A program made the translations under genes and the position numbers. From Chthoniobacterales bacterium (GTDB lineage Bacteria; Verrucomicrobiota; Verrucomicrobiia; Chthoniobacterales; UBA10450): a DNA stretch of 64,000 bases. The notes beneath the pieces were generated by a model. It did no database searches, was not told the origin of the DNA, and was given only the letters and a program-made list of their open reading frames with translations. This document shows positions 12,154 through 29,562 of this stretch, in pieces. The number at the start of each line of letters is the position of its first letter. Positions within the stretch are counted from its first letter, which is position 1. Location: positions 1 through 64,000 of the forward strand of contig JACDGS010000020.1 of assembly GCA_013821455.1 (NCBI GenBank), in the 5' to 3' direction.

Positions 12154-12156
12154 GTT

Positions 12157-12849: not shown

Positions 12850-12885
12850 CGGCCGGTAATTGTCAGATCGCTTCGTTAGGCTTCG

Positions 12886-13281: not shown

Positions 13282-13364
13282 GCAGTCTCGTCCCGCGTGA
13301 TTGCCCGATTGCCGTGGGACTAAAGCCGAAGCGGGCTCGTGCCGCGAGATTGAAGGCTCAGAGA

Positions 13365-13394: not shown

Positions 13395-13495
13395 ATTTCC
13401 TGATTTCTGCGCGGTCTCGGTTGTTCCGAGACGAACCTTCGAGGATTCAGCGCTTCCTTTTCCGGGTGGATGATTTCACCTACTGTTGAAACCAT

Positions 13496-13924: not shown

Positions 13925-13938
13925 CGAGTGCCTAACGA

Positions 13939-15012
13939 ATGCATATTCCCGACGGCTATCTGAGTCCTTCCACCTGCGCGGTCATGTATGGGGGAGCGTT
14001 GCCGTTCTGGACTTTCGCCGCCCGTCGCCTGCGCCAGAGCGTGGGCTCGCGACTCGTTCCGCTCCTGTCCGTTTTCGCCGCCTTTTCGTTTGTCGTCATG
14101 ATGTTCAACCTTCCGCTGCCCGGCGGGACGACGGGCCACGCCGTTGGCATGGGCATCGGTGCGATTGTGCTCGGGCCATGGGCTGCGATGCTCGCGATCT
14201 CCATCGCATTGCTCATCCAGGCGCTTTTTTTTGGCGACGGCGGGATCACTGCTTACGGAGCGAATTGTTTTAACATGGCGATCGTCGGCTCGCTCGTGAG
14301 CTACGGAATTTATCGAGCTTTCGCGGGCCATTCGCCGTTGACCGCACCGCGTCGAGTCTTCGCCGCGGGCTGCGCGGGCTACGTTGCGATTAATGTTTCC
14401 GCTCTCCTCGCCGCGATTGAATTTGGGATTCAACCGCTGCTTTTTCATGACGCTGCCGGGGCGCCGCTTTACGCGCCTTATCCCCTGCGAATCGCAATCC
14501 CAGCGATGCTCGTCGGCCACCTTACTTTCGCAGGAATCGCGGAGCTGATTATTTCTGCGGGCGTGGTCGCGTGGCTGCAACGCGCGGAGCCTGCTCTGCT
14601 GGCGCGTTCGGCGCCTAACGCGGTCGTCACTTTGGGGAAGGCCACTGCATCGGGAAGGGAAAGTCTGCGCCGGCTCTGGGTCGCTCTGGCTGCACTCATG
14701 ATTCTGACACCGCTCGGTTTGCTCGCCGCGGGCACGGCGTGGGGTGAATGGAGTGCGAAGCAATTCCAGGATCCCGCGAACCGTCGCGCGATCGCGGCCG
14801 CATCTTTTCAGACCGAAGTGCCGTCGCGCGCGCCCGCGGGTTTGGAAAAGCTCTCGACTCTTTGGACCGCGCCCTTCCCCGCCTACGCGCCGCCGTTTCT
14901 GAAGAGCGCATCGTTAGGCTACATCCTCTCCGCTGTTCTGGGCACGGGATTGATCATCGCGGCCTGTCTCGGCTTTGGCTGGGGCGCGCGCTTGCTCGCG
15001 GCGCGATTCTGA
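13939..15012 (+). CDS. cbiM: Nickel/cobalt ECF transporter substrate-binding subunit (CbiM/NikM fused to NikN-like part)
   Basis: Integral membrane S component of an energy-coupling-factor transporter. 357 residues. The N-terminus MHIPDGYLSP is the metal site, where the N-terminal amine and His2 bind Ni(II). About six membrane helices follow to residue 215 (FWTFAARRL, LLSVFAAFSFVVMMF and IGAIVLGPWAAMLAISIALL are examples). The last 120 residues, with a helix at LAALMILTPLGLLAAGTA, a periplasmic loop and a final helix at GYILSAVLGTGLIIAACLGF, match the NikN/PDGLE-type partner, so M and N are fused. Context with nikR and hydrogenase genes favours nickel over cobalt. Confidence 0.9.
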   Translation: MHIPDGYLSPSTCAVMYGGALPFWTFAARRLRQSVGSRLVPLLSVFAAFSFVVMMFNLPLPGGTTGHAVGMGIGAIVLGPWAAMLAISIALLIQALFFGDGGITAYGANCFNMAIVGSLVSYGIYRAFAGHSPLTAPRRVFAAGCAGYVAINVSALLAAIEFGIQPLLFHDAAGAPLYAPYPLRIAIPAMLVGHLTFAGIAELIISAGVVAWLQRAEPALLARSAPNAVVTLGKATASGRESLRRLWVALAALMILTPLGLLAAGTAWGEWSAKQFQDPANRRAIAAASFQTEVPSRAPAGLEKLSTLWTAPFPAYAPPFLKSASLGYILSAVLGTGLIIAACLGFGWGARLLAARF

Positions 15013-15013
15013 A

Positions 15014-15823
15014 ATGTCCTCACGGTCATTTCTCGAACGCAGTCTCGCTTCCTTCGTTGCGATTATCGAACAGGCGATCGTCGCCGAGGAGTTCGCGCGG
15101 CGGGACGGCTTTCTACAAAAGCTCGATCCGCGAGTAAAGCTGGGCGGCTTTCTCGCGCTCATTTTCGTGTCCGTGGCGACGCATAATCTTGCCATCGTGG
15201 CGGCGACGTTTTTCCTTGCGACTGCGCTTGCCTTTTTCTCGGAAATTTCCCTCAGCGCTCTTGCTTTACGCGCCTGGTTACCGGTCGCGCTTTTTACGGG
15301 AGTGATCGCAATGCCAGCGCTTTTCCTCACGCCCGGGCCCGCGCTGATTCGCGCGCCTATGATCACGGCCAACGGTTTGCGCGCAGCGACATTTCTCATC
15401 GGACGCGCCGAGACGGCAGCGACCTGCGCGTTGATTTTGGTGTTAAGCACAAAGTGGCCGCACCTACTCCACGCCCTGCGAGCGTTGCGTCTCCCGCGCG
15501 CCGTCATCGTCGTTCTCGGAATGACGCAACGTTATATTTTTTTTCTGCTGCGCGCGGCTCAGGATCTATTTGCCGCGCGCCGTAGCCGCATCATCGCTCC
15601 TCTCGACGGGCGGACGCGGCGTCATCTCGCCGCCGCGAATGCCGGTGTCTTGATCAGCCGCAGTCTCGATCTCAGCGGCGAAGTTTACGCCGCGATGCAG
15701 GCGCGCGGCTTTCGCGGCGAGATCCATACCCTGGAGGCGTTGCGCATGCGGCCTAACGACTGGCTCGCGCTCACCCTTTTTCTCGCCGTGGCGGTGACTT
15801 TGTTTTGGGTCGGCGGCCACTAA
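15014..15823 (+). CDS. cbiQ: ECF transporter transmembrane component CbiQ/NikQ
   Basis: Membrane T component that couples the ATPase to the nickel-binding subunit. The frame is open from 14975, but the ATG at 15014, two bases after the cbiM stop, gives the expected 269 residues and removes an unlikely Arg/Cys-rich extension. Membrane helices are visible around residues 45-85 and 90-125 and at the C-terminus (LALTLFLAVAVTLFWV). The coupling helices carry Ala-Arg-Gly type motifs: RSLDLSGEVYAAMQARGFRGE near residue 225 (split here by family variation). Confidence 0.9.
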   Translation: MSSRSFLERSLASFVAIIEQAIVAEEFARRDGFLQKLDPRVKLGGFLALIFVSVATHNLAIVAATFFLATALAFFSEISLSALALRAWLPVALFTGVIAMPALFLTPGPALIRAPMITANGLRAATFLIGRAETAATCALILVLSTKWPHLLHALRALRLPRAVIVVLGMTQRYIFFLLRAAQDLFAARRSRIIAPLDGRTRRHLAAANAGVLISRSLDLSGEVYAAMQARGFRGEIHTLEALRMRPNDWLALTLFLAVAVTLFWVGGH

Positions 15824-16630
15824 ATGTTCGACCTGAACGAGGTCAGCTTTCGCTATCCCGACGCGGCAGCGCTGTGCGGCGTCACTCTTTCGATCGCGGC
15901 CCGGCAACGGATCGCACTCCTCGGCGCGAACGGCTCCGGCAAATCGACCCTGCTGCGGCTGCTCGACGGTCTCGCTTTTGCCGAGAGCGGCACGATTACC
16001 TTCAACGGGAAATGCCTAACGAGCGCGCAGTTCGAGGAAGAAGCCTTCGCCTTCGATTTTCGCCGCCGTGTCGCGCTCGTTTTCCAAAACCCAGATGTGC
16101 AACTTTTCAATCCCACGGTCTTCGACGAGCTGGCCTTTGCGCCGTTGCAACTGCGCTGGCCTAACGATGAAATCCGCGCACGGATCGCCGACCTCCTGCA
16201 GACGATGGGCCTGGCTCATCTCGCCGAACGCGCGCCGCATCGACTGTCTGAAGGAGAGAAAAAACGCGTCGCGCTCGCCAGCGTCATGATTACGCAACCC
16301 GATGTGCTCCTGCTCGACGAACCGACCGCGAGCCTCGATCCGCGGAGCCGCAATTTCATGATCGAATACCTGCTCGATTGCCGCGGCCGGCGCACCGTGA
16401 TTACCGCGACCCACGATCTCCATATTCTCGAAGAGATCGCCGACTATTGTTTCGTGCTGCACGAGGGCCGGCTCGTTGCCGCGGGCGCTCCTAACGAGTT
16501 GCTCGCCGACGAAAAGCTGCTGCGTGAGACCGGTCTCGTGCACGCGCATCGGCATCGGCATGAAGGTGGGGTGGTGCATTCCCATCCGCACGATCACCAC
16601 TCGCCTTCGGGCGCGCACCGGCATTCGTGA
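15824..16630 (+). CDS. cbiO: ECF transporter ATP-binding subunit CbiO/NikO with His-rich tail
   Basis: ABC ATPase that powers nickel uptake. 268 residues. Walker A LLGANGSGKST, Q-loop VFQNPDVQLFNPTVFDEL (typical of CbiO), signature LSEGEKKRVALA, Walker B DVLLLDEPTASLDP and the switch His in TATHDLHILEE. The ATG follows the cbiQ stop directly. The last 30 residues are an unusual His-rich tail with about 12 histidines in HAHRHRHE and HSHPHDHH type runs, likely to bind or sense metal on the cytosolic face. Its end overlaps hypF by four bases (GTGA). Confidence 0.93.
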   Translation: MFDLNEVSFRYPDAAALCGVTLSIAARQRIALLGANGSGKSTLLRLLDGLAFAESGTITFNGKCLTSAQFEEEAFAFDFRRRVALVFQNPDVQLFNPTVFDELAFAPLQLRWPNDEIRARIADLLQTMGLAHLAERAPHRLSEGEKKRVALASVMITQPDVLLLDEPTASLDPRSRNFMIEYLLDCRGRRTVITATHDLHILEEIADYCFVLHEGRLVAAGAPNELLADEKLLRETGLVHAHRHRHEGGVVHSHPHDHHSPSGAHRHS

Positions 16631-18939
16631 AAATCGAGCGCGTCAAAGTCGCGATCCGAGGAGCGGTCCAAGGCGTCGGCTTCCGTCCGTTCGTTTATCG
16701 GCTGGCGACGGAAATGAAGCTTTGCGGCTGGGTCACGAACTCGGCCGAGGGAGTTTTGCTGGAGATCGAGGGAACGGGTGCGGTGCTGCGAGACTTCGTC
16801 GTTAGGCTGAAGGACGAGAAACCGGCGCGCGCGGTCGTGCAAAGCTGCGAGACGTCGTTTCTCGATGCAGTTGGCTACGAACGCTTCGAAATTCGCGAGA
16901 CCGAAAGTAGCGGCGAGAAGAGCGCGCTCATCCTGCCGGACATCGCGACTTGCGCAGATTGCCTGCGCGAAACCTTCGCGCCGGACGATCGCCGCTTTCG
17001 TTACCCGTTTACGAATTGCACCAATTGCGGGCCGCGTTTCTCCATCATCGAAGCGCTGCCCTACGATCGTGCCAACACGTCGATGAAGAAGTTCCCGATG
17101 TGCGAAGAATGTGAGCGCGAATATCACGATCCGGGCGATCGGAGATTTCACGCGCAGCCCACGGCGTGTCCGCGCTGCGGGCCACAATTGGAACTTTGGG
17201 ACTCGTTAGGCAAGACTCTTAGCGGGAGAGACGAGGCGCTGCAGCAAGCAGCCGCGGAAATCCGCGCTGGTAAAATTCTCGCCCTCAAAGGGCTCGGCGG
17301 ATTTCAATTGCTCGTCGATGCGCGGGACGAGGAGGCCGTCGTTAGGCTGCGCGAGCGCAAACATCGCGAGGAAAAACCTTTCGCCGTTCTTTTCCCATCT
17401 CTCATCGCCGCGCAGGCCGTTTGCGAAATTTCGGAGCTCGCGGAGCGACTGCTCATCTGCATCGAGTCGCCAATTGTCCTGGTGCCGAAAAGGTCAGGGC
17501 TCGCGCCATCGCTTGCTCCGCAAAATCCCTACCTTGGCGCGATGTTGCCTTACACGCCGCTGCATCATCTTCTCATGCGCGAGCTCGATTTCCCGGTCGT
17601 CGCGACGAGCGGAAATCTGAGCGACGAACCGATCTGCATCGACGAAGACGAAGCGCGCGAGCGGCTGCGCGGGATCGCGGATTTGTTCCTCGTGCACGAC
17701 CGGCCCATCGTTAGGCCGATCGACGATTCGGTCGCGCGCATCATGTGCGGGCGCGAGCTGGTTATGCGCCGGGCGCGCGGCTTTGCGCCGCTGCCGATTT
17801 CGTTGGAGTTGCCTAACGACGCGCCAAAATCGAAGCCCGTTCTCGCCCTAGGCGCGCACTTAAAAAATACCGTCGCGCTGCGAGTGCACGAAAACGTCTT
17901 CGTCAGCCAGCATATCGGCGATCTTTCGACCCATCCGGCCTACGAATCCTTTCTGCGCGCCGCGGCCGATTTGCCGCGCCTTTACGAGGCGGAGCCGCAG
18001 GTGACCGCGCACGACCTGCACCCGGAATATCTCTCGACGAAACACGCGCTCAGCCTCACCGGACGCCACGTCGCGGTGCAACATCACTTTGCGCACATCG
18101 CGGCCTGTATGGCGGAAAACGAAATCGACGGGCCCGCGCTCGGCGTTTCCTGGGATGGCACGGGTTACGGAAACGACGGCACGATTTGGGGCGGAGAATT
18201 TCTATTCGTTAGGCAAAATGGGTCGTTTGACCGCGTCGCGCATCTGCGCGCGTTCCGCCTGCCCGGAGGCGACCAGGCGACTAAAGAGCCGCGCCGCGCG
18301 GCGCTTGGCCTCCTCCACGAAATGGTGGGCGATGGACTTTGGCAGCAGCCTGAGTTGCTAAGCGCGATTGAGGAAAACGAGCGGCTTGTCTTTCGGCAAA
18401 TGCTCGAGCGGAAAATCAACGCGCCGCTGACTTCGAGCGCGGGGAGATTATTCGACGCGGTCGCGGCCATCATCGGCTTGCGGGAGCGCGCGAGTTTTGA
18501 AGGCCAGGCGGCGATGGCCCTCGAATTTGCCGCCGATGCCGCTGTTCGCGCGAGTTATCCTTTCACCTTACGCGAAGCAGACCCGATGATCGTTGATTGG
18601 GAACCGGCGATTTCCGCGCTGTTAGGCGATTTAAATACCGGCGCGTCTATACCCACCATGGCGGGAAAATTTCATCAAACTTTGGTCGAGATGATCGTCG
18701 CACTCGCGCGAAAGGTGGGAGAAGAAAAAGTAGTTCTAAGCGGCGGTTGTTTTCAAAATCGTCTTTTGACTGAGCGCACGATCACAGGCCTGCGCGCTGC
18801 GAATTTTCGCCCATATTGGCACCAACGCATTCCGCCTAACGACGGCGGGATTTCCCTCGGGCAAATCGTTGCGGCGAGCTGGAGTCTGCGCCATCACCCG
18901 TCCGCGGGGGCCCGGAGAAAATTGCCCTCAAACTCCTGA
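16627..18939 (+). CDS. hypF: Carbamoyltransferase HypF
   Basis: Makes the thiocarbamate on HypE that becomes the cyanide ligands of the NiFe centre. 770 residues, full length. Domains in order: acylphosphatase (residues 1-90, VAIRGAVQGVGFRPFVYRLA), a zinc-finger region with CADC, CTNC, CEEC and CPRC pairs (about 105-190), a YrdC-like carbamoyl-adenylate domain (about 205-390) and a Kae1-like transferase domain (about 400-760) with HHFAHIAACMAEN and VLSGGCFQNRLL. The start is GTG overlapping cbiO. Seven exact copies of the octamer lie within the gene (16799, 17203, 17339, 17708, 17812, 18206, 18835), about one per 330 bp. Confidence 0.96.
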   Translation: MKIERVKVAIRGAVQGVGFRPFVYRLATEMKLCGWVTNSAEGVLLEIEGTGAVLRDFVVRLKDEKPARAVVQSCETSFLDAVGYERFEIRETESSGEKSALILPDIATCADCLRETFAPDDRRFRYPFTNCTNCGPRFSIIEALPYDRANTSMKKFPMCEECEREYHDPGDRRFHAQPTACPRCGPQLELWDSLGKTLSGRDEALQQAAAEIRAGKILALKGLGGFQLLVDARDEEAVVRLRERKHREEKPFAVLFPSLIAAQAVCEISELAERLLICIESPIVLVPKRSGLAPSLAPQNPYLGAMLPYTPLHHLLMRELDFPVVATSGNLSDEPICIDEDEARERLRGIADLFLVHDRPIVRPIDDSVARIMCGRELVMRRARGFAPLPISLELPNDAPKSKPVLALGAHLKNTVALRVHENVFVSQHIGDLSTHPAYESFLRAAADLPRLYEAEPQVTAHDLHPEYLSTKHALSLTGRHVAVQHHFAHIAACMAENEIDGPALGVSWDGTGYGNDGTIWGGEFLFVRQNGSFDRVAHLRAFRLPGGDQATKEPRRAALGLLHEMVGDGLWQQPELLSAIEENERLVFRQMLERKINAPLTSSAGRLFDAVAAIIGLRERASFEGQAAMALEFAADAAVRASYPFTLREADPMIVDWEPAISALLGDLNTGASIPTMAGKFHQTLVEMIVALARKVGEEKVVLSGGCFQNRLLTERTITGLRAANFRPYWHQRIPPNDGGISLGQIVAASWSLRHHPSAGARRKLPSNS

Positions 18940-19021
18940 CAGAAGCCGCGTGCGGTGATACAATTTTAACCTGCGAAGGCGTGGCGATCAGCAAAGTCCC
19001 CCCGCCTAACGAGGACTCACC

Positions 19022-19312
19022 ATGTGCCTGGCAATACCCGGAAAACTCACTGAGATCAGCATCGACGCCAATGGCGTGCGGATGGGGAAAGCGAACTTTG
19101 GCGGCATCGTCAAGCAGGTCTGTCTCGAATACACGCCGGAGGTGGAGATGGGCGATTACGTTTTGGTGCACGTCGGTTTTGCGCTGAGCAAAGTGGATGA
19201 GGAGGAAGCAGCCCGCACTTACAAGGCGCTCGAGCAAATGCAGCAGTTAGGCGAATTGGAAACGCCGGATGTGACCGAAGAAGATTTGCCTAACGAATCG
19301 GCCGCGGCATGA
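19022..19312 (+). CDS. hypC: Hydrogenase assembly chaperone HypC
   Basis: Carries the Fe(CN)2CO unit together with HypD to the large subunit. 96 residues. Starts [12 protein letters not shown], where Cys2 is essential; the [22 protein letters not shown] segment is typical. The C-terminal 30 residues are acidic and variable. An in-phase GAGGA (19011-19015), formed by the end of a motif copy (19005-19012), sits seven bases before the ATG and is a good ribosome site. It overlaps hypD by four bases (ATGA). Confidence 0.95.
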
Positions 19313-20442
19313 AATTTCTCGACGAATATCGCGACGAGGCTCTGGCGAAAGGCATCATCGACGAAATTCGCCGCACGGTCACGAAACCGTGGGTGCTGAT
19401 GGAAGTCTGCGGCGGGCAGACGCACTCGATCGTCAAATACGGGATCGACCGTTTATTGCCTAGCGAGATCGAACTCGTGCACGGTCCGGGTTGCCCGGTC
19501 TGCGTCACCTCGCTCGAAATGATCGACAAAGCGCTCGAGATCGCGCGCAAGCCCGGCGTGATTTTTTGTTCCTTCGGCGACATGTTGCGCGTTCCCGGGT
19601 CCGAGACCGACCTGCTAATCTTGAAGTCGCGCGGCGCGGATGTGCGGGTCGTTTATTCGCCGATCGATTGTCTGAAAATCGCCCGCGCAAATCCGGACAA
19701 AAAAGTCGTCTTTTTCGCGATCGGTTTCGAGACGACTGCGCCGGCCAACGCGATGTCGGTCTGGCAGGCGCGGCAACAAGGGATCAAGAATTTTTCCATC
19801 CTCGTTTCGCATGTCCTGGTGCCGCCATCGATCGCCTCCATTCTGCAATCGCCGCTCAATCGCGTGCAGGGATTTCTCGGACCGGGCCATGTTTGCACTG
19901 TCATGGGCTACCGCGAATACGAGCCGCTCGCGGCGCGTTACAAAGTGCCGATCGTCATCACCGGGTTCGAGCCGATCGATATTTTGCAAGGGACGCTGAT
20001 GACCATTCGCCAGCTCGAAACGGGCAGGGCCGAAGTGGAAAATCAATATCCACGAGTCGTTAGTCGCGATGGCAACAAAGTCGCGCAGGATTTGATCAAC
20101 AAAGTTTTCGAAGTCGGCGATCGCAAATGGCGCGGCGTGGGTTCGATTCCCAAGAGTGGCTACAAACTGCGGTATGAATTTCGCGACTACGATGCCGACC
20201 GCATTTTCGACACGCGCGAGATCGATACGAAAGAGCCGGAGATTTGCATCAGCGGGCTGGTTTTGCGCGGAGTGAAAAAGCCGCACGACTGTCCCGCCTT
20301 CGGCACGCTTTGCACTCCCGAGAAGCCGTTAGGCGCGACCATGGTTTCGGCCGAAGGCGCCTGCGCGGCCTATTACGCCTACGGTCGCCATCTGCAAAAA
20401 CCCGCCGCCACGCCTAACAAAGAACTCGCGCTCGCTCGTTAG
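19309..20442 (+). CDS. hypD: Hydrogenase formation protein HypD
   Basis: Fe-S scaffold on which the Fe(CN)2CO group is built. 377 residues. Conserved motifs are [27 protein letters not shown] with the redox-active Cxx[14 protein letters not shown], and the C-terminal cluster ligands in [21 protein letters not shown] (spaced Cys) with EGACAAYY. It is translationally coupled to hypC. The stop region reads CTCGTTAGC, one base off the dispersed motif. Confidence 0.96.
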
Positions 20443-20444
20443 CG

Positions 20445-21071
20445 ATGAGCGTTACGATCGAGACGGCCACCGACCGGCTGACGGAGCCGTTTCGCGAAAA
20501 AGTCCTGCGCAAATGCGCCGAGAGCATGGAGACAAAGGAGAAGTTCTTCGCGCAATATGCCGATGCCTTCGACGAAATGTCACGCGCTCTCGCCGGGCGT
20601 TTTCAAAGCGGCGGCAGGCTCTTCGTCATGGGCAATGGTGGCAGCCTCTGCGACGCGCTGCATATAGCGGTCGAATTTAATCATCCGATTATCGAAAAGC
20701 GTCTCGCCTTTCCCGCGATCCCGCTCATGACCGATATCGCGACCATGACCGCGATTAGCAACGACCTCGATTTCACGCGCGTTTACGTGAACCAGCTTCG
20801 CCTCCACGCTACGCCTAACGACATCGCGATGGTCTTTAGTTCGAGCGGCAAATCGCCCAATCTCATTTACGCGCTGGAGACGGCGCGCGAGAAAAAGATG
20901 TTGAGCGTCGCCTTTTCCGGCAAAGACGGCGGACGTTTTCCCGAAGTCTCGGATTATTGCTTCATTGTTCCTTCTTACAGCATCCATCGCATCCAGGAAG
21001 CGCACGCGACGGCGGTGCATATCATTTGGGATTTGGTGCACATCGCGTTAGGGGCAGAGGATGTCACCTGA
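20445..21071 (+). CDS. SIS-domain protein, GmhA-like (sedoheptulose 7-phosphate isomerase family)
   Basis: 208 residues, single SIS domain of the GmhA type: FVMGNGGSLCDALHIAVEFNHP at about residues 62-83 and FSSSGKSPNLIYAL with the phosphate-binding Ser cluster. GmhA normally makes the first step of ADP-heptose synthesis, but here it lies between hypD and hypE, two bases after hypD and overlapping hypE by 11 bases, with no heptose gene nearby. The usual GmhA has SAADAQHIA-like metal ligands; here the matching stretch is SLCDALHIA, so one should not assume heptose activity. SIS genes at this position recur in group 1h clusters as far as I recall. The role in hydrogenase maturation is unknown. 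Confidence 0.75.
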   Translation: MSVTIETATDRLTEPFREKVLRKCAESMETKEKFFAQYADAFDEMSRALAGRFQSGGRLFVMGNGGSLCDALHIAVEFNHPIIEKRLAFPAIPLMTDIATMTAISNDLDFTRVYVNQLRLHATPNDIAMVFSSSGKSPNLIYALETAREKKMLSVAFSGKDGGRFPEVSDYCFIVPSYSIHRIQEAHATAVHIIWDLVHIALGAEDVT

Positions 21072-22140
21072 CGAGTCCGCGACGCCCGCAGACCGAAGTC
21101 TCCTGACAGCGAGCTGCCCCCTGCCGATCACCGATTACAAGGAGATCGTCCTCGCGCATGGGAGCGGGGGGAAGCTGAGCCATCAGCTCATCTCGAAAAT
21201 TATCGCGCCGCAGTTTGCCAACGAGCTGCTCGCGCCGATGCACGACGGCGCCATCTTTTCGTTAGGCAACGAGCGCGTCGCTTTTAGCACCGATTCCTAT
21301 GTCGTTAGTCCAATTTTTTTCCCCGGCGGCGACATCGGGAAACTCGCAGTCCACGGGACGGTGAACGATCTCGCCATGTGCGGCGCGCGGCCGCTTTATC
21401 TTTCCTGCGGTTTTATTCTCGAGGAAGGGATACCGATGGAGGATTTTTGGCGAATCGTGCAATCGATGCGGGCCGCGGCGGATGAAGCCGGCGTAAAGCT
21501 TGTGACCGGCGACACCAAAGTCGTCGATCGCGGGAAGGCCGATAAAATTTTCATCAACACGGCCGGCATCGGCCTTGTGCCGGAAGGCGTGAACATCCAG
21601 CCAAACCGCGCTCAAATTGGCGACAAGGTTTTGATCAGCGGCCCGATCGCCGTGCATGGCATCGCGATCATGTCGGTGAGGGAAGGCTTGGAATTTGAAA
21701 CGGAAATCGCGAGCGACACGGCCGCGCTCCATGGCTTGGTCGAGGAAATCCTGCGCGCTTGTCAGGATGTGCATGTCCTGCGCGACCCGACGCGCGGCGG
21801 CGTGACGAGCGCAGTGACGGAAATCGCGCAGTCCGCGGGCGTCGGTGTGGAATTGGAGGAAGCTGCAATTCCCATTCGCGAGGACGTGAAAGGCGCTTGT
21901 GAGATTCTCGGGCTCGATCCGCTCTATGTCGCGAACGAGGGAAAGCTGATCGCGGTCGTGCCGCCGGCGGCGGCGGAAGAAGTGCTCGCGGCCATGCGCC
22001 TTCACTCGTTAGGCAAAGAGTCTGCGATCATCGGTGAAGTGGTGCCTGATCATCCGGGTTTCGTCACTATGAGAACGCGCGTGGGCGGGAGGCGCGTGGT
22101 GGATATGCTTTCCGGCGAGCAGTTGCCGCGAATTTGCTAG
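21061..22140 (+). CDS. hypE: Hydrogenase expression/formation protein HypE
   Basis: PurM-like ATP-dependent dehydratase that turns the C-terminal thiocarbamate into thiocyanate, the cyanide donor. 359 residues including an N-terminal extension of about 25 residues (variable); the conserved part begins at IVLAHGSGGKLSHQLI. Other marks are FSTDSYVVSPIFFPGGDIGKLAVHGTVNDLAMCGA, VTGDTKVVDRGKADK and LRDPTRGGVTS. The essential C-terminal Cys is present in the final residues LPRIC. The upstream overlap with the SIS gene could be removed by an internal start, but none is clearly better. Confidence 0.95.
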   Translation: MSPDESATPADRSLLTASCPLPITDYKEIVLAHGSGGKLSHQLISKIIAPQFANELLAPMHDGAIFSLGNERVAFSTDSYVVSPIFFPGGDIGKLAVHGTVNDLAMCGARPLYLSCGFILEEGIPMEDFWRIVQSMRAAADEAGVKLVTGDTKVVDRGKADKIFINTAGIGLVPEGVNIQPNRAQIGDKVLISGPIAVHGIAIMSVREGLEFETEIASDTAALHGLVEEILRACQDVHVLRDPTRGGVTSAVTEIAQSAGVGVELEEAAIPIREDVKGACEILGLDPLYVANEGKLIAVVPPAAAEEVLAAMRLHSLGKESAIIGEVVPDHPGFVTMRTRVGGRRVVDMLSGEQLPRIC

Positions 22141-22271
22141 TCATCCTGAGCGGAGCGCAGCGGAGTCGAAGGATCCCGTGGAATTTTCGGGAAGCGCGTA
22201 CGCAAGTTCGGCCAACGCTACGAGATCTTCTCATAAGCTCGACGGGATCCCTCGACTTCGCTCGGGATGAC
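22141..22271. repeat. REP-like palindromic element after hypE
   Basis: Two arms in inverted orientation: TCATCCTGAGCGGAGCGCAG (from 22141) continuing to GTCGAAGGATCCCGT, and ACGGGATCCCTCGACTTCGC continuing to TCGGGATGAC (about 22232-22270). They can fold into a long imperfect hairpin. Elements beginning CATCCTGAGCG and containing GTCGAAGGATC are common dispersed repeats of many soil bacteria. It lies one base after the hypE stop and may end the transcript. Motif copy 22315-22322 follows. No gene is seen in 22141-22341. Confidence 0.7.
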
Positions 22272-22341
22272 GATGTTCGAGACAAGTCCCATTCTTGAGA
22301 AGAGATTCCTATGTTCGTTAGGCAAGACATAAGGCGGTCGC

Positions 22342-23091
22342 CTAGTTAGTCCCTAAATCGATTTTGGGCTGGACGGAGAGACCAGGGTAGATGCGGTCTT
22401 CGTAGCCGCGCACCCTCTCAGGATCAAAGACGATTTTCACCGGCACGCGCTGGACGATCTTAGTGAAGTTGCTGGTAGCATTGTCTGGTGGAAGGAACGC
22501 AAAAGTTGAGCCACTCCCGGGTGAAAAGCTTTGCACTTTGCCGACGAAATCGTGATCGGGAATAGCATCGATCTCAATCGCGACACTTTGACCGACTCGT
22601 AGCAGCGCGAGTTGTGTTTCCTTAAGGTTAGCAAGGACCCAGACATCGCGTTCGACTACTGCCATGAGGGCCGAGTAGCACGAGTATCTGACCTGCGTTT
22701 ACGAGTTGGTTGTCATCGACACGCACTTCTTGAACGGGGCTGCGATACGGGCGCTTATCTCGTGGATGTGTCCGGTAGTATAAGCGTCGTCCGTAGAGAC
22801 GAAGTGACGGGCATGCAGGTAATACAGCAGCCCGATAATAAGGAGGACCGCCAAGCCGATAATGCCGATGCCGATGATTTTTCCAAGGTCGGTCCGCTTT
22901 TTCTCCTTCTTGTCGTCCTCATCGGAAGATTTGTTCTTGGAATTCTCTTTCCCGTTTGAGTCTTCGTTTTCCTTCTTAGGGCCGTTGGACTCCTTTTCAC
23001 CGTCGTCTTTCTTGCCTTCGGAAGAGTCGGTGGATTTTTCCTTATCGTTGCCGTTCTTCTCCTCGTCGGAGTCAGGTTCTTGGTCGAGCAT
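22342..23091 (-). pseudogene. emrA/HlyD-type membrane fusion protein, internally deleted and frameshifted
   Basis: The N-terminal piece (23091 to about 22700) has an unusual low-complexity Glu/Lys/Asp/Ser-rich cytosolic segment of 65 residues, one membrane helix (IIGIGIIGLAVLLIIGLLYYL) and the EmrA-like stretch HFVSTDDAYTTGHIHEISARIAAPF. The frame then shifts: the expected VRVDDNQLVNAGQILV is readable in another phase. The C-terminal piece (22665-22342) resumes at MAVVERDVWVLANLKETQLA and ends PGLSVQPKIDLGTN. The coiled-coil arm of roughly 150 residues that should lie between is missing. It would have been part of a multidrug efflux pump; no partner permease is nearby. Confidence 0.75.
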
Positions 23092-23150: not shown

Positions 23151-24668
23151 ATGAAAAGGGTATTCGGATTGGAAACGGAATACGGCATCACCGTGGATGG
23201 CACGGAATCAATCGACGTGGTCGAGGAATCAATCGAGCTCGTGCGCAGTTACATGGAAAAAGGCGCGCATATGAAGTGGGATTACGACCTGGAGGATCCG
23301 CATCGGGATGCGCGTGGGTTCCGCGCGGCCACGTTACTTCAGGATACGGATGAGTCGGCTTACTTCGAGATCGATCGCAAGCGGCCACTGAGTTTCGAAG
23401 AGATTAAGAGCGACCTGGTGTTGAGCAACGGCGCGCGCTTTTATAACGACCACGCGCACCCTGAATATTCCACCCCGGAATGCGCCACTCTGCACAGCCT
23501 CGGGGCGCAAGATAAGGCCGGGGAACGCATTCTTCTGGAATGCGCACGGCGGCGCAATCTGAAGTTACCTAACGAACAAGAGGTCCGCCTTTATAAGAAT
23601 AACACCGATTTCTCAGGTCATAGTTACGGCTGCCATGATAACTATCTGATTCGCCGCGATGTCCCTTGGGCGCGTTTGGTTTCCGACGTGCTTCCTTTCC
23701 TGGTTACGCGACAGATTTTCGCCGGCGCGGGTAAGTTGGGGATTGAAGTAGAAAGCGCGCCCAGTCAGCCGGGAGTTTATCAGATATCGCAGCGTGCGGA
23801 TTTTTTCGCGGTCCTGGTGAGCATCGATACGATGAATCGCCGGCCGTTAGTGAATACCCGCGATGAACCCCATGCCGATGCGCGTTTCTATCGCCGCTTT
23901 CATGTCATCCTCGGCGATGCGAACATGAGTGAGTGGGCGACCGCGCTTAAAGTCGGGACCACAGCGCTGGTGCTCGACTTAATCGAGCGGGATGAGGCGC
24001 CGCAGATCGAGCTGGCTCAACCAGTCAACGCGCTCAAATCAATTAGCCGCGACCAGACCTATGATTGGATCATCGAATTGCGTGATGGCCGCAAGATATC
24101 CGCGATCGAAGTGCAAAGACTCTATCTCGCCGCCGCCCAGAAACACGCCGACCGTGGCGATGCCGAGACGGCATGGATTCTTGGCGAATGGGAAACAGTC
24201 CTTAACGATCTGGAACGCGACGTCACTATTTGCCGCGATCGAGTGGATTGGATGGCGAAGAAAACCTTACTCGACGCCTTACAGGCCGCAGAGCACTTAG
24301 CCTGGAGCGATCCGTGGTTGCAGGCAATCGATTTGCAATACCATGACATTCAACCTGACTCAGGACTCTACCATGAGTTAGTCAGACAAGGTGCGATGCG
24401 CCGCCTGCTCACGGAAGACGAAATCAAGCAGGCTATCTCAACCCCGCCGGCTGAGACACGCGCTTACTTTCGCGGGCGCGCGGTGGCGCGTTTTAACTCC
24501 GAGATCAAGTCGATCCAATGGGATGAACTGGTTTTCACGAAAGAGGGGAACCGTCAGGTCATCGCGCTCCCGGAACCGGCGAACGACGCGCGCCTCGAGA
24601 GCTTAAATGCCGCGGTCCGGGACGCGGCGAGTTATCCGGAGTTTCTCCGCATCGTGACCGCTTTGTAA
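23151..24668 (+). CDS. dop: Dop, Pup deamidase/depupylase (PafA superfamily)
   Basis: Carboxylate-amine-ligase-fold enzyme that deamidates Pup and removes it from proteins. 505 residues from the ATG at 23151 (the frame opens at 23103, but MKRVFGLETEYGIT is the natural N-terminus). Dop is favoured over PafA by the inserted KWDYDLEDPHRDARGF segment (Dop-loop region), NGARFYNDHAHPEYSTPEC, YKNNTDFSGHSYGCHDNYL, NTRDEPHADA and TRAYFRGRAVARF near the C-terminus. Neither pup, pafA nor proteasome genes are in the window, so Dop is separated from its partners here. Codon use is of the highly expressed kind and only one octamer copy is present. Confidence 0.88.
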   Translation: MKRVFGLETEYGITVDGTESIDVVEESIELVRSYMEKGAHMKWDYDLEDPHRDARGFRAATLLQDTDESAYFEIDRKRPLSFEEIKSDLVLSNGARFYNDHAHPEYSTPECATLHSLGAQDKAGERILLECARRRNLKLPNEQEVRLYKNNTDFSGHSYGCHDNYLIRRDVPWARLVSDVLPFLVTRQIFAGAGKLGIEVESAPSQPGVYQISQRADFFAVLVSIDTMNRRPLVNTRDEPHADARFYRRFHVILGDANMSEWATALKVGTTALVLDLIERDEAPQIELAQPVNALKSISRDQTYDWIIELRDGRKISAIEVQRLYLAAAQKHADRGDAETAWILGEWETVLNDLERDVTICRDRVDWMAKKTLLDALQAAEHLAWSDPWLQAIDLQYHDIQPDSGLYHELVRQGAMRRLLTEDEIKQAISTPPAETRAYFRGRAVARFNSEIKSIQWDELVFTKEGNRQVIALPEPANDARLESLNAAVRDAASYPEFLRIVTAL

Positions 24669-24711: not shown

Positions 24712-25137
24712 TTACTTGCCCTGCGCTTTGCGCCGAGCGGCCCAGCGGGCCTTCATCATTTGCGAGAGCCTTTTACGGCCCGCTGCGCTAAGTCCTCTTT
24801 TCTTGCCGGAGGTTTTCTTCGCGGCAGTTTTGGTGGAGGCGGCGGCAGGTGCGGCAGCGCTGGCTTCACTTCCACCTGTAGCGCCGGCTTTCTTACGAGC
24901 CCAGCGCGCACGGGCGGCGGCGGCGATGCGCGCACGTCCAGCGGCGGAGATAGTACCACGGCGCTTCCTGCCATTCCCTTTTTTCGCGCTTCCAGGCGGC
25001 CGGCCTTTGCGCGCGCCAGTAGGAGCGCTAGCAGTACCACCGGAGCCACCCAGCAGACTATTGAGTTGACTTTGCAAGTGATCGATCTGCTGTCTTATCG
25101 ACACTGCTTTTTGCAATTGATTTACGGATAGGTCCAT
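24712..25137 (-). CDS. Basic DNA-binding-like protein with two repeated Ala/Arg motifs
   Basis: The frame opens at 25212, but the ATG at 25137 (MDLSVNQLQKAVSIRQQID) fits better and gives 141 residues. Residues 1-25 form an amphipathic, probably coiled-coil helix. Then come a Gly/Ser linker, a Lys/Arg-rich stretch GRPPGSAKKGNGRKRRG, a motif ISAAGRARIAAAARARWA, an Ala/Ser/Thr linker and a second copy LSAAGRKRLSQMMKARWA. The repeated SAAGRxR...ARWA unit and high basic content suggest a nucleoid-associated or histone H1-like protein. This is inference; I do not know the family name. It is convergent with dop. Confidence 0.6.
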   Translation of the reverse strand: MDLSVNQLQKAVSIRQQIDHLQSQLNSLLGGSGGTASAPTGARKGRPPGSAKKGNGRKRRGTISAAGRARIAAAARARWARKKAGATGGSEASAAAPAAASTKTAAKKTSGKKRGLSAAGRKRLSQMMKARWAARRKAQGK

Positions 25138-25259
25138 GGCGGAGTTATAAGCTATGTCTAGAAGAGAGCAAGTAGTCTTTTCACTCATAGGAAAAGATTT
25201 TGTAACTAACAATGAACCACACCTCCCTCCGACTAAGGCGCGACGGTAGCGTCTTTAAC

Positions 25260-27812
25260 TCAGCTCCACGAGATCAAGCGCAATTCGTGGTCCTGCAGAA
25301 GGTGAGGATAAGTAGGCACGACGCGCACGCTAAAACCATAGGTGCCACTTTCCGAAGCGGGGATAGAGCCTTCATACAGATAGGAACCTTCCTGGCCATT
25401 GCTTCCCTTCTCGGTTAGGACAGTCGTGCTGGCGTTGCGCAAGTCAGCGCCGTCGGCTTCCCCATGGTAAGCTTCGACGCGGACATGTTTAGGATCGACG
25501 CCGCCGAGATGGACTTGCGCACTTAGGCGCAGGGCATCGCCAACCTGGATATTCTGGCGATCAGGATTTGCTACTTGTATGTCGCCAATTCTTACCTGTG
25601 GCCAGTCTTTGCGCATTTGCGCTTTCCAATGACTCAGTTCCGTGGCAGCACGATGCTGATCGCGGGAAAACTCCATGTGCGCCTTAGCTGCCGGGAGGTA
25701 GAGTCTCTCGGCATACTCCTGGACCATGCGATGAGTATTAAAAGTTGGGGTCACACTGCGGATCGATTCACGCATTAATTGCAACCAGGCCAGCGGCAGC
25801 TTGCCATCGGGCTTCGCGTAATAGAGCGGGATGATTTGGTTTTCGAGTATCTGATATAAGCTCGCGGCATCGACTTCGTTTTGGAATTCCACTCCTCCTT
25901 CGGTGATCTCCGAGCCGATAGCCCAACCGTTCTTGCCGTTATAGCTTTCGCACCACCAGCCATCGAGCACACTCAGGTTTAGGCCGCCGTTAGGCGGAAG
26001 TTTCATCCCGCTCGTGCCGCTGGCTTCGAGTGGACGCAGCGGATTGTTTAGCCATAGGTCAACGCCTTGGACGAGGCGGCGCGCAATGTAAGTATCGTAG
26101 TCTTCGACAAAGACGATGCGGTTATGAAAACCAGGCTGGCGCGAGAGCTGGTACACTTCCTGGATGAGTGCCTTTCCGCCTTCATCTCTGGGATGGGACT
26201 TCCCAGCGAAAACAAACTGCACCGGACGCGCGCTATCATTGAGCATCCTTTGCAAACGTTCCGGATCGCTAAAGAGGAGCGCGCCTCGTTTGTAAGTCGC
26301 GAAACGGCGCGCAAAACCTATGGTCAGTATTTCCGGGTCGAGGATAGAATGGACCGCGCGAATAGACTCGGGTGACTCACCCAGCCGCTCACGACGCGCG
26401 CGGACGCGATCGCGCACGAAATTTACCAGGCGCAGCTTCAGCTTCTGATGAGTCTCCCATAACTCTGCGTCAGGAATATCCATGACGCCGCGCCAGAAAT
26501 CCGGGTCGGTTAGGTGCTCTTCCCAATCACCGAGATACTTCGTGTAAAGAGCGGAGAACTCCGGCGCCATCCAGGTCTTCGTATGGATACCGTTGGTGAT
26601 ACTCGTGATCGGCACCTCATGAGTTGGAACCTTGGCCCAGACATCTTTCCAAAGCGTCTGACTCACTTTGCCGTGCAGCTTACTCACGCCATTCGCGTGT
26701 CGGCTGGTGCGAAGTGCGAGAATGGTCATGCTAAAACTCGCCACGGGATTAGTCGTGGTTTGCCCAAAGTGGAAGAGCTCGTCGAAGGAAATTCTTAACT
26801 GGTTCGCGAGGTCGCCGAAGTAACGCACCATCATATCGCGCGGGAAGGCGTCGTTCCCCGCGGGCACGGGTGTATGTGTGGTAAAGACGTTCGCCGATGC
26901 GACGAGCTGTAACGCGGAATAGAAATCTAGATTCTCCTGTGTGACGTGGAGACGAATACGTTCGAGCGAAAGAAAGGCTGAGTGGCCTTCATTCATGTGA
27001 AACACTTCGGGCTGGAGTCCTAGTGCGTTGAGCGCTTTCACGCCACCGACACCGAGGACGATCTCCTGGCGCATCCGCATCTCGAGATCGCCGCCGTATA
27101 ACTCCGCGGTGATCAAGCGATCTTCCGGACCGTTCTCCGGAATGTCGGTATCGAGGAGATAGAGATCTATTCGGCCTACGTGAAGTCGCCAGATTTTGGC
27201 GAAGACGTGCCGGTCGAGCAAAGGAACTGCTACGAGTAAGATCTTATCATCCGCGAGCACTTCGCGGATCGGCAGATGATGGAAGTTCTGGTTGAGACTT
27301 ACCGCTTCCTGCCAGCCATCCTTATTAATCTGCTGCTTAAAGTAACCGTGCCGGTAGAGTAAGCCGACTGCGACAAAGTTGAGGTCGAGGTCACTCGCGG
27401 ATTTGCAATGATCGCCCGAAAGAATGCCAAGGCCGCCGGAGTAGTTTGGAATTGACTCATGAAAACCAAACTCAGCCGAGAAGTACGCGATGGGTCTCTT
27501 GAAAGTGCGCCCGGCGCCCTTCTTACCATAAGTGTCTTTGCGCGCGAGATACTTTTGGAAAGCGCCGTAGACCTGCGCCAGGTCGCGCAGGAAACTCTCA
27601 TCCTTCGCCACCTCGACCAGCCGCGCCTGACGCGAGAGTTGCAGCATGCGCAGCGGGTTATGATTCGTGACATGCCACAGCTCGGGATCGAGATGACGAA
27701 AGAGACGGCGCGCCGAAGGCTCCCAAGTCCACCACAGATTGAAGACGATCTCGCGCAGCGGTTCGAGCTGCTCCGGGAGATTAGGAATGACGTGATAAGT
27801 CTGAATGTTCCG
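25260..27812 (-). CDS. glgP: Alpha-glucan phosphorylase (GT35)
   Basis: Releases glucose 1-phosphate from glycogen or maltodextrin. 850 residues from the ATG at 27812 (MRNIQTYHVIPNLPE); the frame extends 11 residues further (MRPFIPRRFLM). This is the phosphorylase form starting with a DUF3417 segment (LREIVFNLWWTWEPSARRLF). Other marks are YFSAEFGFHESIPNYSGGLG, the TTHTPVPAGNDAF and SITNGIHTKTWMAPE stretches, and the PLP region EASGTSGMKLPPNGG. The C-terminal 100 residues form a beta-sandwich. No motif copy is present in 2.5 kb. It stands alone, with no glgB/glgX nearby. Confidence 0.93.
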   Translation of the reverse strand, partial: RNIQTYHVIPNLPEQLEPLREIVFNLWWTWEPSARRLFRHLDPELWHVTNHNPLRMLQLSRQARLVEVAKDESFLRDLAQVYGAFQKYLARKDTYGKKGAGRTFKRPIAYFSAEFGFHESIPNYSGGLGILSGDHCKSASDLDLNFVAVGLLYRHGYFKQQINKDGWQEAVSLNQNFHHLPIREVLADDKILLVAVPLLDRHVFAKIWRLHVGRIDLYLLDTDIPENGPEDRLITAELYGGDLEMRMRQEIVLGVGGVKALNALGLQPEVFHMNEGHSAFLSLERIRLHVTQENLDFYSALQLVASANVFTTHTPVPAGNDAFPRDMMVRYFGDLANQLRISFDELFHFGQTTTNPVASFSMTILALRTSRHANGVSKLHGKVSQTLWKDVWAKVPTHEVPITSITNGIHTKTWMAPEFSALYTKYLGDWEEHLTDPDFWRGVMDIPDAELWETHQKLKLRLVNFVRDRVRARRERLGESPESIRAVHSILDPEILTIGFARRFATYKRGALLFSDPERLQRMLNDSARPVQFVFAGKSHPRDEGGKALIQEVYQLSRQPGFHNRIVFVEDYDTYIARRLVQGVDLWLNNPLRPLEASGTSGMKLPPNGGLNLSVLDGWWCESYNGKNGWAIGSEITEGGVEFQNEVDAASLYQILENQIIPLYYAKPDGKLPLAWLQLMRESIRSVTPTFNTHRMVQEYAERLYLPAAKAHMEFSRDQHRAATELSHWKAQMRKDWPQVRIGDIQVANPDRQNIQVGDALRLSAQVHLGGVDPKHVRVEAYHGEADGADLRNASTTVLTEKGSNGQEGSYLYEGSIPASESGTYGFSVRVVPTYPHLLQDHELRLISWS

Positions 27813-27907
27813 CATAAGAAACCGTCTGGGTATGAAGGGTCGCAAACTCTGGCAGGAAAACAGATAGCAGCAAGCGTTCCCTGCCGCCCTTCTCCCGGGT
27901 GTGGGAG

Positions 27908-29512
27908 TTAGAGAGTCAAAGCGGGCGGGCTATGTTGGGCAAGAAGCAGGCCTACCAGCACCCCGGTGAAAAATCCGCTCAGATGCGCGACGAGACTTAC
28001 TTGCGGTGTGAGGAGATCGAAGATCGTCTGGAAAGCGACGATACCCAGAATCTCGCGCAAGCGTCGCCCTGCGAGTGGCGTCTGCCGATGACGCAGCAAC
28101 AATCCGGCGGAAATACCGATGACACCCATGACACAACCGGAAGCTCCGACCAGTTGATCTTCTCTCGTTAGGCCAAGAGCGCGCAGCAGCACAACGCCTC
28201 CGCTGGAACCTAGACCAGAGATAAGATACCCCGCGGCGAATGGAATCGAGCCGATAACACGTTCCAGCGCCGGCCCGAGGAGATAGAGCGCGTAAAGATT
28301 AACAAAGAGATGGAGAAAGCCATAGTGCAGGAAAAGCGCGCTCACCAGCCGCCAATACTCATGACCTTGCAGCACCACCGCCGGCTCAAGCGCGCCAAGA
28401 CGATGGAGGGTTGGCTCATTCGTGGCTCCGCCTAGCGCTAGCTCTGCGCCAAACATCGCAAGATTAAGAAAAACAAAACCCCACACCGCGACCGGACGCC
28501 GAGTGCGCAGCGGCATTTGTCCACTCCAACCGCCGGATCTTTCTTCGAGCAGACGGCTCACTAATTTTTCCGTCGCGGGTGCGAGTTGCGCGTGTGGAAA
28601 TGTCTCCGCCCGCGCGAGCCGCGCGGCGATGGCCTTTTCGAGAATAGCGTCACCGGTCTGGTTCCGCAGGCTCGTCAGGCGTGAGGTCGCTGCGTCTGTT
28701 TTTCCCGCCGTTAATTCCGCCGTCGCGATCCAAAATTCCTGATGTGCACGCGGAAAACGCGCAAGCGTGCTTTGTAAGAGCCTAACGACAGCACCGACCT
28801 TCCCGGCGAAGGCGAGCAGATAAAGCAACTCCTGCGCGGACTGCGGCGAGAGCTCAAACCGCTGCTCCAGCATCGGAGCGCGCCCGGCGAAGCTCCAGGC
28901 CAACTCTTCCACTGCGCCGGTTTCGCCGAGCGCGCGCAGATAGAGCGCTCGCACCACCGGATCTGCCGTGACCTTCAAATCGCGTCGGCACCACTCTGCC
29001 AAGCCTCTCCAATTCTCGGTCAGAGCATAAGTGTAGGCGGTTGCCACCTCAGCGCCCGGTGTCTTAGTGCGCGCAGTGGCCAGTTGATCGAGCGCCGCAA
29101 CGAGATTTCCAGCACGAGCGAGTTCCAGAGCACCGAGCGACGATGGCAAATTCCCCGCGCCGTACCATGGATGAAATATTCGCCTAACGAGTGTAAGACG
29201 ATACGCTGCGCGGTAACGCCTTTCCAAAACAAGGCCAGAAATTTTCCTCTCCGTTAACGAGGGTAGGAGCAGGAGCAACGCCCAGGCGCTGCCGCCGATG
29301 TAACCAGCAATCGCGGGCGCAAGGAGCCAGCCAAATCCGCTCACCAAAAGAACGATCGTCGCCGCCGCGATCCAGCCTCGAGGCCGCGTGCGTCGCATGC
29401 GCGCCATCCGCCAAAGCAAAATCAGCGGAGAGGCCAGCGCGATGAAGAGAAGGATATGATTGAGGTCGAGCAAACGGAAGAGCAAGTCGGTTATCGTGCG
29501 GCGGTTTGTCAA
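27908..29512 (-). CDS. Rhomboid-family intramembrane serine protease
   Basis: 534 residues. The N-terminus has two or three membrane helices (ILLFIALASPLILLW and IAAATIVLLVSGFGWLLAPAI). A soluble helical, TPR-like region follows (about 100-330: SLGALELARAGNLVAALDQL and ALYLRALGETGAVEEL). The C-terminal 200 residues are the rhomboid domain: YWRLVSALFLHYGFLHLFVN with the conserved His and Asn, the nucleophile Ser in LVGASGCVMGVIG, and the catalytic His in SLVAHLSGFFTG. The substrate is unknown. It is divergent from the DsbA-like gene, only 38 bp away. Confidence 0.9.
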   Translation of the reverse strand: MTNRRTITDLLFRLLDLNHILLFIALASPLILLWRMARMRRTRPRGWIAAATIVLLVSGFGWLLAPAIAGYIGGSAWALLLLLPSLTERKISGLVLERRYRAAYRLTLVRRIFHPWYGAGNLPSSLGALELARAGNLVAALDQLATARTKTPGAEVATAYTYALTENWRGLAEWCRRDLKVTADPVVRALYLRALGETGAVEELAWSFAGRAPMLEQRFELSPQSAQELLYLLAFAGKVGAVVRLLQSTLARFPRAHQEFWIATAELTAGKTDAATSRLTSLRNQTGDAILEKAIAARLARAETFPHAQLAPATEKLVSRLLEERSGGWSGQMPLRTRRPVAVWGFVFLNLAMFGAELALGGATNEPTLHRLGALEPAVVLQGHEYWRLVSALFLHYGFLHLFVNLYALYLLGPALERVIGSIPFAAGYLISGLGSSGGVVLLRALGLTREDQLVGASGCVMGVIGISAGLLLRHRQTPLAGRRLREILGIVAFQTIFDLLTPQVSLVAHLSGFFTGVLVGLLLAQHSPPALTL

Positions 29513-29514
29513 TC

Positions 29515-29562
29515 ATAGGTCGCATGCGACTTATAGGTCCTATGGGACCTATGCGACTCACT
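29515..29562. repeat. Overlapping palindromes between divergent genes
   Basis: The gap between two divergent starts is filled by near-repeats of ATAGGTC/GACCTAT: the perfect 12-base palindrome GTCGCATGCGAC (about 29519-29530) and the near-palindrome ATAGGTCCTATGGGACCTAT (about 29533-29552). The array spans the first start codons of the downstream frame. It may be an operator for a dimeric regulator or a short mobile repeat. Confidence 0.55.

What the first reader, a model, noticed from the sequence alone, without database searches (positions are those of the whole stretch)
23151..24668. Dop without pup, pafA or proteasome genes beside it
In actinobacteria dop sits with pup and the proteasome genes. 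Here a Dop-type enzyme is flanked by an efflux pseudogene and a histone-like gene. Either the Pup/UBact system is elsewhere in the genome, or this Dop serves another modifier.
Basis: partly seen in the sequence, partly recalled or inferred. Interest (0 to 1): 0.5.

Follow-up and report, generated by a model that had tools for sequence, protein, structure and literature searches.

The report
Ordinary depupylase of a scattered UBact system
This gene is the genome's only found remover (and probable activator) of a small ubiquitin-like tag; the tag, its ligase and the proteasome are in the same genome but scattered over other contigs, so the isolated gene is ordinary, with a mildly interesting history of gene-cluster break-up.

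Summary
Window 23151-24668 (+) encodes a full-length Dop with all six catalytic or loop residues that I checked, and no pup/UBact, pafA or proteasome gene beside it. UBact (58 aa, ending RTGQ)-prcB-prcA is on C36, one PafA on C108, the ARC/Mpa ATPase on C97. This is the only Dop found; nothing points to another modifier.

The host is related to Chthoniobacterales (Verrucomicrobiota). In another family of its class the six genes form one cluster, ARC-dop-ubact-prcB-prcA-pafA (6 of 6 loci). In the window's family ARC is still upstream of dop in 52 of 68 genomes, but ubact-prcBA and pafA lie elsewhere in the genomes I read. In the window's genus and one neighbouring genus that last link is also broken: hypE of a [NiFe]-hydrogenase cluster precedes dop in all 5 genomes where that side is visible. 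In the window a broken HlyD-type gene lies between hypE and dop.

Most likely role: converting UBact-Gln to UBact-Glu and removing UBact from conjugates. A new, dispersed member of a known system; low interest.

The parts
23151..24668 (+). dop: UBact deamidase/de-conjugase (Dop), 505 aa, the only copy found in the assembly
   Evidence: Pfam PF03136 559.6 bits; TIGR03688 490.9 vs TIGR03686 400.8; aligned from residue 1 to about 475 with 4b0r/5lrt/9cku Dop chains, E 1e-124 to 1e-117; W43, R96, Y98, D100, H101 and W457 each shared by 91 of 91 Dop rows
23277..23447 (+). Dop-loop region (from conserved W43 to the codon before D100), the segment that distinguishes Dop from PafA; limits approximate
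   Evidence: W43 aligns with the loop Trp W47 of A. cellulolyticus Dop (role of W47 from passages of PMC8599861); the catalytic Asp is residue 100 here and residue 70 in this genome's PafA, counted on the sequences
22342..23091 (-). remnant of an HlyD/CusB-type membrane-fusion (efflux) gene, in two ORFs, lying between hypE and dop
   Evidence: C-terminal ORF 22342-22665 matches PF00529/PF16576; N-terminal ORF 22699-23091 ends at a stop; no match to either ORF in the map of 97 relative loci
21061..22140 (+). hypE; in four related genomes it ends about 55-190 bp upstream of dop
   Evidence: TIGR02124 483.8 bits; spacing in L017-L020
19309..21071 (+). hypD and a SIS-domain (GmhA-like) gene preceding hypE
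   Evidence: TIGR00075 508.4 bits; phosphoheptose-isomerase models 134-135 bits, below their cut-offs
24712..25212 (-). Lys/Ala-rich 'histone-like' gene, convergent with dop; a relative was matched only in loci of the window's genus and one neighbouring genus
   Evidence: no Pfam match; tblastn matches in L017-L020 and L060 only, of 97 loci
25260..27845 (-). glycogen/alpha-glucan phosphorylase gene, a downstream neighbour of dop in many relatives
   Evidence: PF11897/PF00343; tblastn map of relatives

Best explanation
The gene is the orthologous, single-copy Dop of a complete UBact-proteasome system whose genes are scattered over the chromosome. Inferred mechanism, by homology with actinobacterial Dop (mechanism from passages of PMC7947786 and PMC8599861): it binds the C-terminal tail of UBact and, using ADP and an active-site phosphate made by cleaving ATP, (1) deamidates the encoded C-terminal Gln (RTGQ) to Glu so that PafA can join it to lysines, and (2) hydrolyses the isopeptide bond, releasing UBact from tagged proteins before ARC feeds them to the 20S core. 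Shown here: presence, single copy in the draft assembly, catalytic residues kept, placement with other Dop, co-occurrence with UBact, and stages of cluster break-up in relatives. Inferred: both activities, the need for deamidation, and that the partners work together although unlinked.
For: Two Pup_ligase matches in the assembly: this one and a PafA on C108 (TIGR03686 324.5 vs TIGR03688 320.6, both below cut-off). A 51-row tree splits 12 PafA rows from 39 Dop-type rows with 100/100 support; this gene and the dop of the compact clusters fall on the Dop side (four of the 39 rows carry the label PafA but are cross-hits on Dop genes). UBact: NF033388 84.1 bits against a cut-off of 35, ends RTGQ, immediately upstream of prcB-prcA; PrcB keeps the TTILAF stretch expected at the start of the mature chain. 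ARC: OB-N, OB-C and AAA domains. Co-occurrence: of 288 genomes of the phylum, 10 hold Pup_ligase (two copies each), and the same 10 are the only ones with UBact over cut-off. In the family: Pup_ligase in 82 of 83 genomes (30 of 30 high-quality), UBact in 73 of 83 (29 of 30), ARC in 77 of 83 (30 of 30). The six genes are contiguous in 6 of 6 loci of family f8.
Against: TIGR03688 is missed by 1.4 bits, and ARC, PrcB, PrcA and PafA also fall below NCBIfam cut-offs: divergent relatives of the characterised proteins. In the alpha-loop several residues typical of actinobacterial Dop are replaced (A220, L222, S224 here, positions matched by hand), so substrate recognition may differ. UBact was not found in 10 of 83 family genomes, one of them high-quality (G068); I ascribe this to incomplete assemblies but did not prove it. 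The tree tool warned that two long branches meet at the PafA/Dop split and rooted at the midpoint. No activity was measured. The assembly is 117 contigs, 97.5% complete and 3.1% contaminated, so a contig from another organism cannot be strictly excluded, though close relatives share the hypE-dop layout.
Confidence: 0.93

Rival explanations
1. This Dop serves a different, unrecognised modifier near the locus.
For: No UBact gene lies nearby. Its alpha-loop differs from the actinobacterial one.
Against: Only one Dop found in the assembly; UBact ends in Gln and should need a deamidase; no short ORF ending [GST]G[QE] in the 64-kb window while the scan finds UBact in 6 of 6 controls; in f8 the orthologous dop is directly before ubact.
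Confidence: 0.02
2. It is a redundant or decaying second copy.
For: It lies beside a decayed HlyD-type gene and has lost the ARC neighbour that most relatives keep.
Against: No second Dop in the assembly; full length, no stops, all checked catalytic residues kept; the same locus in the closest relatives keeps it at 76-85% identity (L017-L020).
Confidence: 0.01
3. Dop is kept mainly as a de-conjugase, and deamidation of UBact is secondary.
For: UBact ends in Glu, which needs no deamidation, in 13 of the 79 genomes with a readable C-terminus (78 plus G337), and 12 of those 13 still have a Dop-type match (in G028 it is in pieces). Gln and Glu both occur within genera g6, g13, g14 and family f8.
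Against: In this genome UBact ends in Gln, so deamidation should be needed. The one Glu genome without a Dop match (G081) is 68% complete, so it tells nothing.
Confidence: 0.35
4. In this lineage dop has become the last gene of the [NiFe]-hydrogenase maturation operon, so its expression follows hydrogenase expression.
For: dop starts about 55-190 bp after hypE, same strand, in 4 of 4 related genomes with both genes in view (L017-L020).
Against: In the window about 1 kb with a reverse-strand HlyD remnant separates hypE and dop. No transcript data. In the loci of other genera HypE was not matched beside dop.
Confidence: 0.1

Closest known systems
Dop (deamidase/depupylase) of Acidothermus cellulolyticus (4b0r, 5lrt; species recalled and from PMC8599861) and the chain 9cku
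   Same: Alignment from residue 1; equivalents of catalytic D94 and of R90, Y92, H95, loop W47 and W453 all present
   Different: Acts on UBact rather than Pup (inferred); alpha-loop residues differ; not clustered with its modifier
UBact-proteasome system (Pfam PF20513, NCBIfam NF033388)
   Same: 58-aa UBact ending in TGQ next to prcB-prcA, plus PafA, Dop and ARC in the same genome
   Different: Genes dispersed over four contigs instead of one cluster
   Same: Same six genes; Dop 52-54% and PafA 46-50% identical to those of this genome
   Different: One contiguous cluster there; four separate places here
Pup-proteasome cluster of actinobacteria
   Same: Same enzyme families and core-particle logic
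   Different: No Pup (PF05639: 0 matches in G000). Iyer et al. 2008 (PMC2588565, passages) state that PafA homologues and Pup are genomic neighbours in all lineages then seen; here they are not

Membership tests
Dop (depupylase/deamidase) | Closer to Dop than to PafA by profile and by tree | tested here: met
   490.9 vs 400.8 bits; grouped with Dop, 100/100, long-branch warning given
Dop (depupylase/deamidase) | Curated NCBIfam equivalog cut-off (TIGR03688, 492.3 bits) | tested here: inconclusive
   490.9 bits, 1.4 below
Dop (depupylase/deamidase) | Catalytic Asp and nucleotide/loop residues (Acel W47, R90, Y92, D94, H95, W453) | tested here: met
   W43, R96, Y98, D100, H101, W457; each 91 of 91 Dop rows; residue roles from passages of PMC8599861
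Dop (depupylase/deamidase) | Dop-loop present (absent from PafA) | tested here: met
   Loop Trp conserved; Asp at residue 100 here vs 70 in this genome's PafA (counted on sequences); loop as Dop hallmark from passages of PMC7947786, PMC9556782 and PMC8599861
Dop (depupylase/deamidase) | Alpha-loop residues conserved in actinobacterial Dop | tested here: inconclusive
   F218 and V221 kept; E, E, G, L positions replaced by A220, L222, S224, I225 (positions matched by hand through)
Dop (depupylase/deamidase) | Deamidase and de-conjugase activity | not testable with these tools
   needs biochemistry
UBact-proteasome system | UBact with C-terminal G[QE] | tested here: met
   NF033388 84.1 bits, cut-off 35; ends RTGQ
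UBact-proteasome system | PafA-type ligase | tested here: met
   C108; PafA side of the tree; below the TIGR03686 cut-off
UBact-proteasome system | 20S alpha and beta subunits and ARC/Mpa ATPase | tested here: met
   TIGR03690 177.1, TIGR03691 95.8 and TIGR03689 470.8 (all three below cut-off), PF00227, PF17758, PF16450
UBact-proteasome system | Genes clustered (usual, not defining) | tested here: not met
   Four contigs; from distances to contig ends any two pieces are at least about 12 kb apart

The most novel reading that the evidence does not exclude
In the window's genus and its neighbour, the tag-removing enzyme of a ubiquitin-like system has left its unfoldase partner and become the last gene of a [NiFe]-hydrogenase maturation operon, so that protein-tag recycling is switched on together with hydrogen scavenging; in the window's own species a broken efflux gene has since cut that link.
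Probability: 0.08. Interest if true: 0.45.

Novelty: new member of a known kind. Interest (0 to 1): 0.2.

Why it matters
It removes a false lead: an isolated dop is not evidence for a new modifier when the genome belongs to a group that has dispersed its UBact genes. It also limits the statement, made from the genomes of 2008, that Pup-type modifiers and their ligases are always neighbours. The natural Gln/Glu switches at the UBact C-terminus, with Dop retained, give a ready set of genomes for separating the two activities of Dop.

Tried and rejected
Pup (PF05639) in the own genome: 0 matches at E <= 10. The eight weaker UBact matches in the genome (E 0.23 to 3, all below cut-off) were taken as chance. 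Two sub-cut-off UBact matches in the phylum search (G261, G180) were rejected because those genomes have no Pup_ligase match. An alternative modifier beside dop was sought as short ORFs ending [GST]G[QE]: none in the window; two end in G[QE] at all, 19653-19904 and 56619-56921, both minus strand; the first lies antisense inside hypD, the second was not examined. The scan has false positives: in control locus L176 it also found two other ORFs.

Rows dropped. In the residue counts the 16 'PafA' rows include 4 that are Dop genes hit by the PafA query (seen in the tree: L048, L049, L055, L074); I use only 12 as PafA, of which G000_PafA and L014_PafA are the same gene. The exclusion list typed (L174, L175, L178, L181) named other rows, so the four stayed in the tree. 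The tree used 51 rows, not all 107. For one search I chose 68 Dop rows by score and neighbourhood; genomes with only short Dop pieces (such as G028, G061, G067, G068) or whose match fell in the unlisted part were left out. In one search one row (G051) has no intact UBact C-terminus, one (G082b) is a second copy in a genome already counted, and G337 failed the pattern but was read.

Literature: searches ('UBact', 18 papers, by title mostly unrelated uses of the letters; one passage of PMC11354881 read; 20 listed of 129, 602 and 298) showed no paper whose title or abstract start describes dispersed UBact genes in Chthoniobacterales. In the 2025 review PMC12288473 the terms gram-negative, Nitrospira, Verrucomicrob and horizontal do not occur. 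The first UBact papers (Lehmann and colleagues) are recalled and were not read. Structure prediction was not run because sequence similarity to solved Dop structures was already decisive.

Full report
What is there. The window's gene at 23151-24668 (+) encodes a 505-residue Dop. It matches Pup_ligase with 559.6 bits and NCBIfam Dop better than PafA (490.9 vs 400.8 bits; the Dop cut-off of 492.3 is missed narrowly). It aligns from residue 1 with three solved Dop sequences. The residues discussed in structural work (D94, R90, Y92, H95, loop W47, W453 in A. cellulolyticus Dop; passages of PMC8599861) correspond to D100, R96, Y98, H101, W43 and W457, each identical in 91 of 91 Dop rows.

Where the rest of the system is. 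The assembly (4.30 Mb, 117 contigs, 97.5% complete) gives two Pup_ligase matches: this one and one on C108. The latter scores about equally on PafA and Dop models (324.5 and 320.6) but falls on the PafA side of a tree (12 PafA rows against 39 Dop-type rows, 100/100, with a long-branch warning). UBact lies on C36: 58 aa, NF033388 84.1 bits over a cut-off of 35, ending RTGQ. prcB and prcA follow on the same strand. The ARC/Mpa ATPase, with both OB domains and the AAA domain, is on C97. Pup itself gives no match.

Is this peculiar to one genome? No. The nearest named relatives are Chthoniobacterales and Spartobacteria MAGs at 76-85% identity (L017-L020). Over the 83 genomes of the family searched, Pup_ligase is found in 82, UBact in 73 and ARC in 77; among the 30 high-quality genomes in 30, 29 and 30. 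Over 288 genomes of the phylum (drawn evenly; minimum completeness set to 90), 10 have Pup_ligase, two copies each. UBact matches 12 at E <= 0.001, and the 10 over cut-off are the same 10 genomes. Dop, PafA and UBact thus come and go together.

How the cluster came apart. In family f8 of the same class, 6 of 6 loci carry ARC-dop-ubact-prcB-prcA-pafA contiguously (L167-L172). In G337, of another family of the same order, ubact-prcB-prcA and pafA are about 4 kb apart on one contig while ARC-dop is on another (L173, L174). In the window's family ubact-prcBA, pafA and dop lie on different contigs in the three well-assembled genomes that I read besides the window's (G038, G039, G021). ARC lies upstream of dop in the same direction in 52 of the 68 genomes used (30 within 500 bp, 13 at 500-3000 bp, 9 beyond), on another contig in 15, and was not found in 1; some of the 15 may only reflect contig breaks. 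In L021 the gap holds a DUF885 protein, an HI0933-like flavoprotein and a LuxR-type regulator; related ORFs occur in several other gaps.

The window's own stage. In the window's genus (5 of 5) and one neighbouring genus (1 of 1) ARC and dop are on different contigs. In the window and in four of the other five genomes the upstream side of dop is in view and holds hypE, not ARC; in those four hypE ends about 55-190 bp before dop (L017-L020). These four loci and L225, L226, L224, L228 are the same places, judged by equal contig lengths. In the sixth genome (G041; L060/L227) the contig ends inside dop. The dop-phosphorylase-rhomboid order downstream is shared with many other loci, so it was the upstream side that was rearranged. 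In the window itself about 1 kb with a reverse-strand HlyD-type remnant separates hypE from dop; no match to it appears in the map of 97 relative loci, so it looks recent.

The C-terminus of UBact. Of 80 rows read, 66 end in Gln, 13 in Glu and 1 (G051) is not intact; one of the Gln rows is a second copy in G082, and G337 was read as Gln, so 79 genomes are readable. Both residues occur inside genera g6, g13 and g14 and inside f8. Of the 13 Glu genomes, 12 have a Dop-type match (in G028 in pieces); the thirteenth, G081, is 68% complete. Dop is therefore probably not kept for deamidation alone, which fits its known second activity, removal of the tag. That the C-terminal signature is G[EQ] was already noted by Iyer et al. 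2008 (passages of PMC2588565).

Comparison with what is known. Iyer et al. 2008 listed verrucomicrobia (e.g. Methylacidiphilum) among lineages with Pup conjugation, show Chthoniobacter flavus in an alignment legend, and stated that PafA homologues and Pup are genomic neighbours in all lineages (passages). A 2020 study reported Dop/PafA homologues 'very sporadically' in drafts of other phyla including Verrucomicrobia (passages of PMC7947786). The present data show the system in 82 of 83 held genomes of one family by its Pup_ligase genes, in dispersed form where I read it. That is a new instance and a modest correction, not a new kind of system.

Limits. No activity or expression was measured; the genome is a draft; the family and genus labels f1, f8, g1 and so on are the tool's anonymous labels; that f8 is Methylacidiphilaceae is my guess. 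That actinobacterial Mpa ends in a Gln-Tyr-Leu-type tail is recalled, not tested here.

Noticed in passing
window 4944-22140: [NiFe]-hydrogenase island: small and large subunits, hypB, hypD, a GmhA-like SIS gene and hypE by family search; hypF, hypC and CbiM/CbiQ/CbiO-type transport genes named by eye from their sequences. The SIS gene between hypD and hypE is kept in L017-L020.
   Followed up: partly
window 22342-23091: Broken HlyD/CusB-type gene with a very acidic/Lys-rich N-terminus; there is a stop between the two ORFs and an internal part seems to be missing.
   Followed up: partly
L077 (G056), about 2000-5100: ARC and Dop lie in one open frame of 1034 codons. Relative to L066 about 165 bp between the genes are missing, the end of ARC is lost and the Dop match starts at residue 9. 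Real fusion or assembly error unknown.
   Followed up: partly
L016:6342-8033 and relatives: ARC ends in a hydrophobic pair (Val/Ile-Val/Ile) after a variable linker in 68 of 70 loci; exceptions L057 and L077. It is not the Tyr-containing tail that I recall for actinobacterial Mpa; if it opens the 20S gate, the contact must differ.
   Followed up: partly
L013:6897-7709 and window 29506-29561: Short Gly-Pro-Ile/Met repeats in the N-terminal extension of the PrcB ORF and in an ORF of the window suggest a small repeated DNA element in both places (by eye).
   Followed up: no
window 22140-22330: Sequence after hypE looks like a dispersed intergenic repeat (two halves in opposite directions); a similar stretch seems to follow pafA in L002 (by eye).
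   Followed up: no
window 24712-25212: Lys/Ala-rich histone-like gene with repeated SAAGR..RWA motifs, matched beside dop only in L017-L020 and L060 of 97 loci.
   Followed up: partly
L131 and L223 (G082): Two UBact genes on two contigs of one genome with slightly different sequences; may be strain mixture in the assembly.
   Followed up: no
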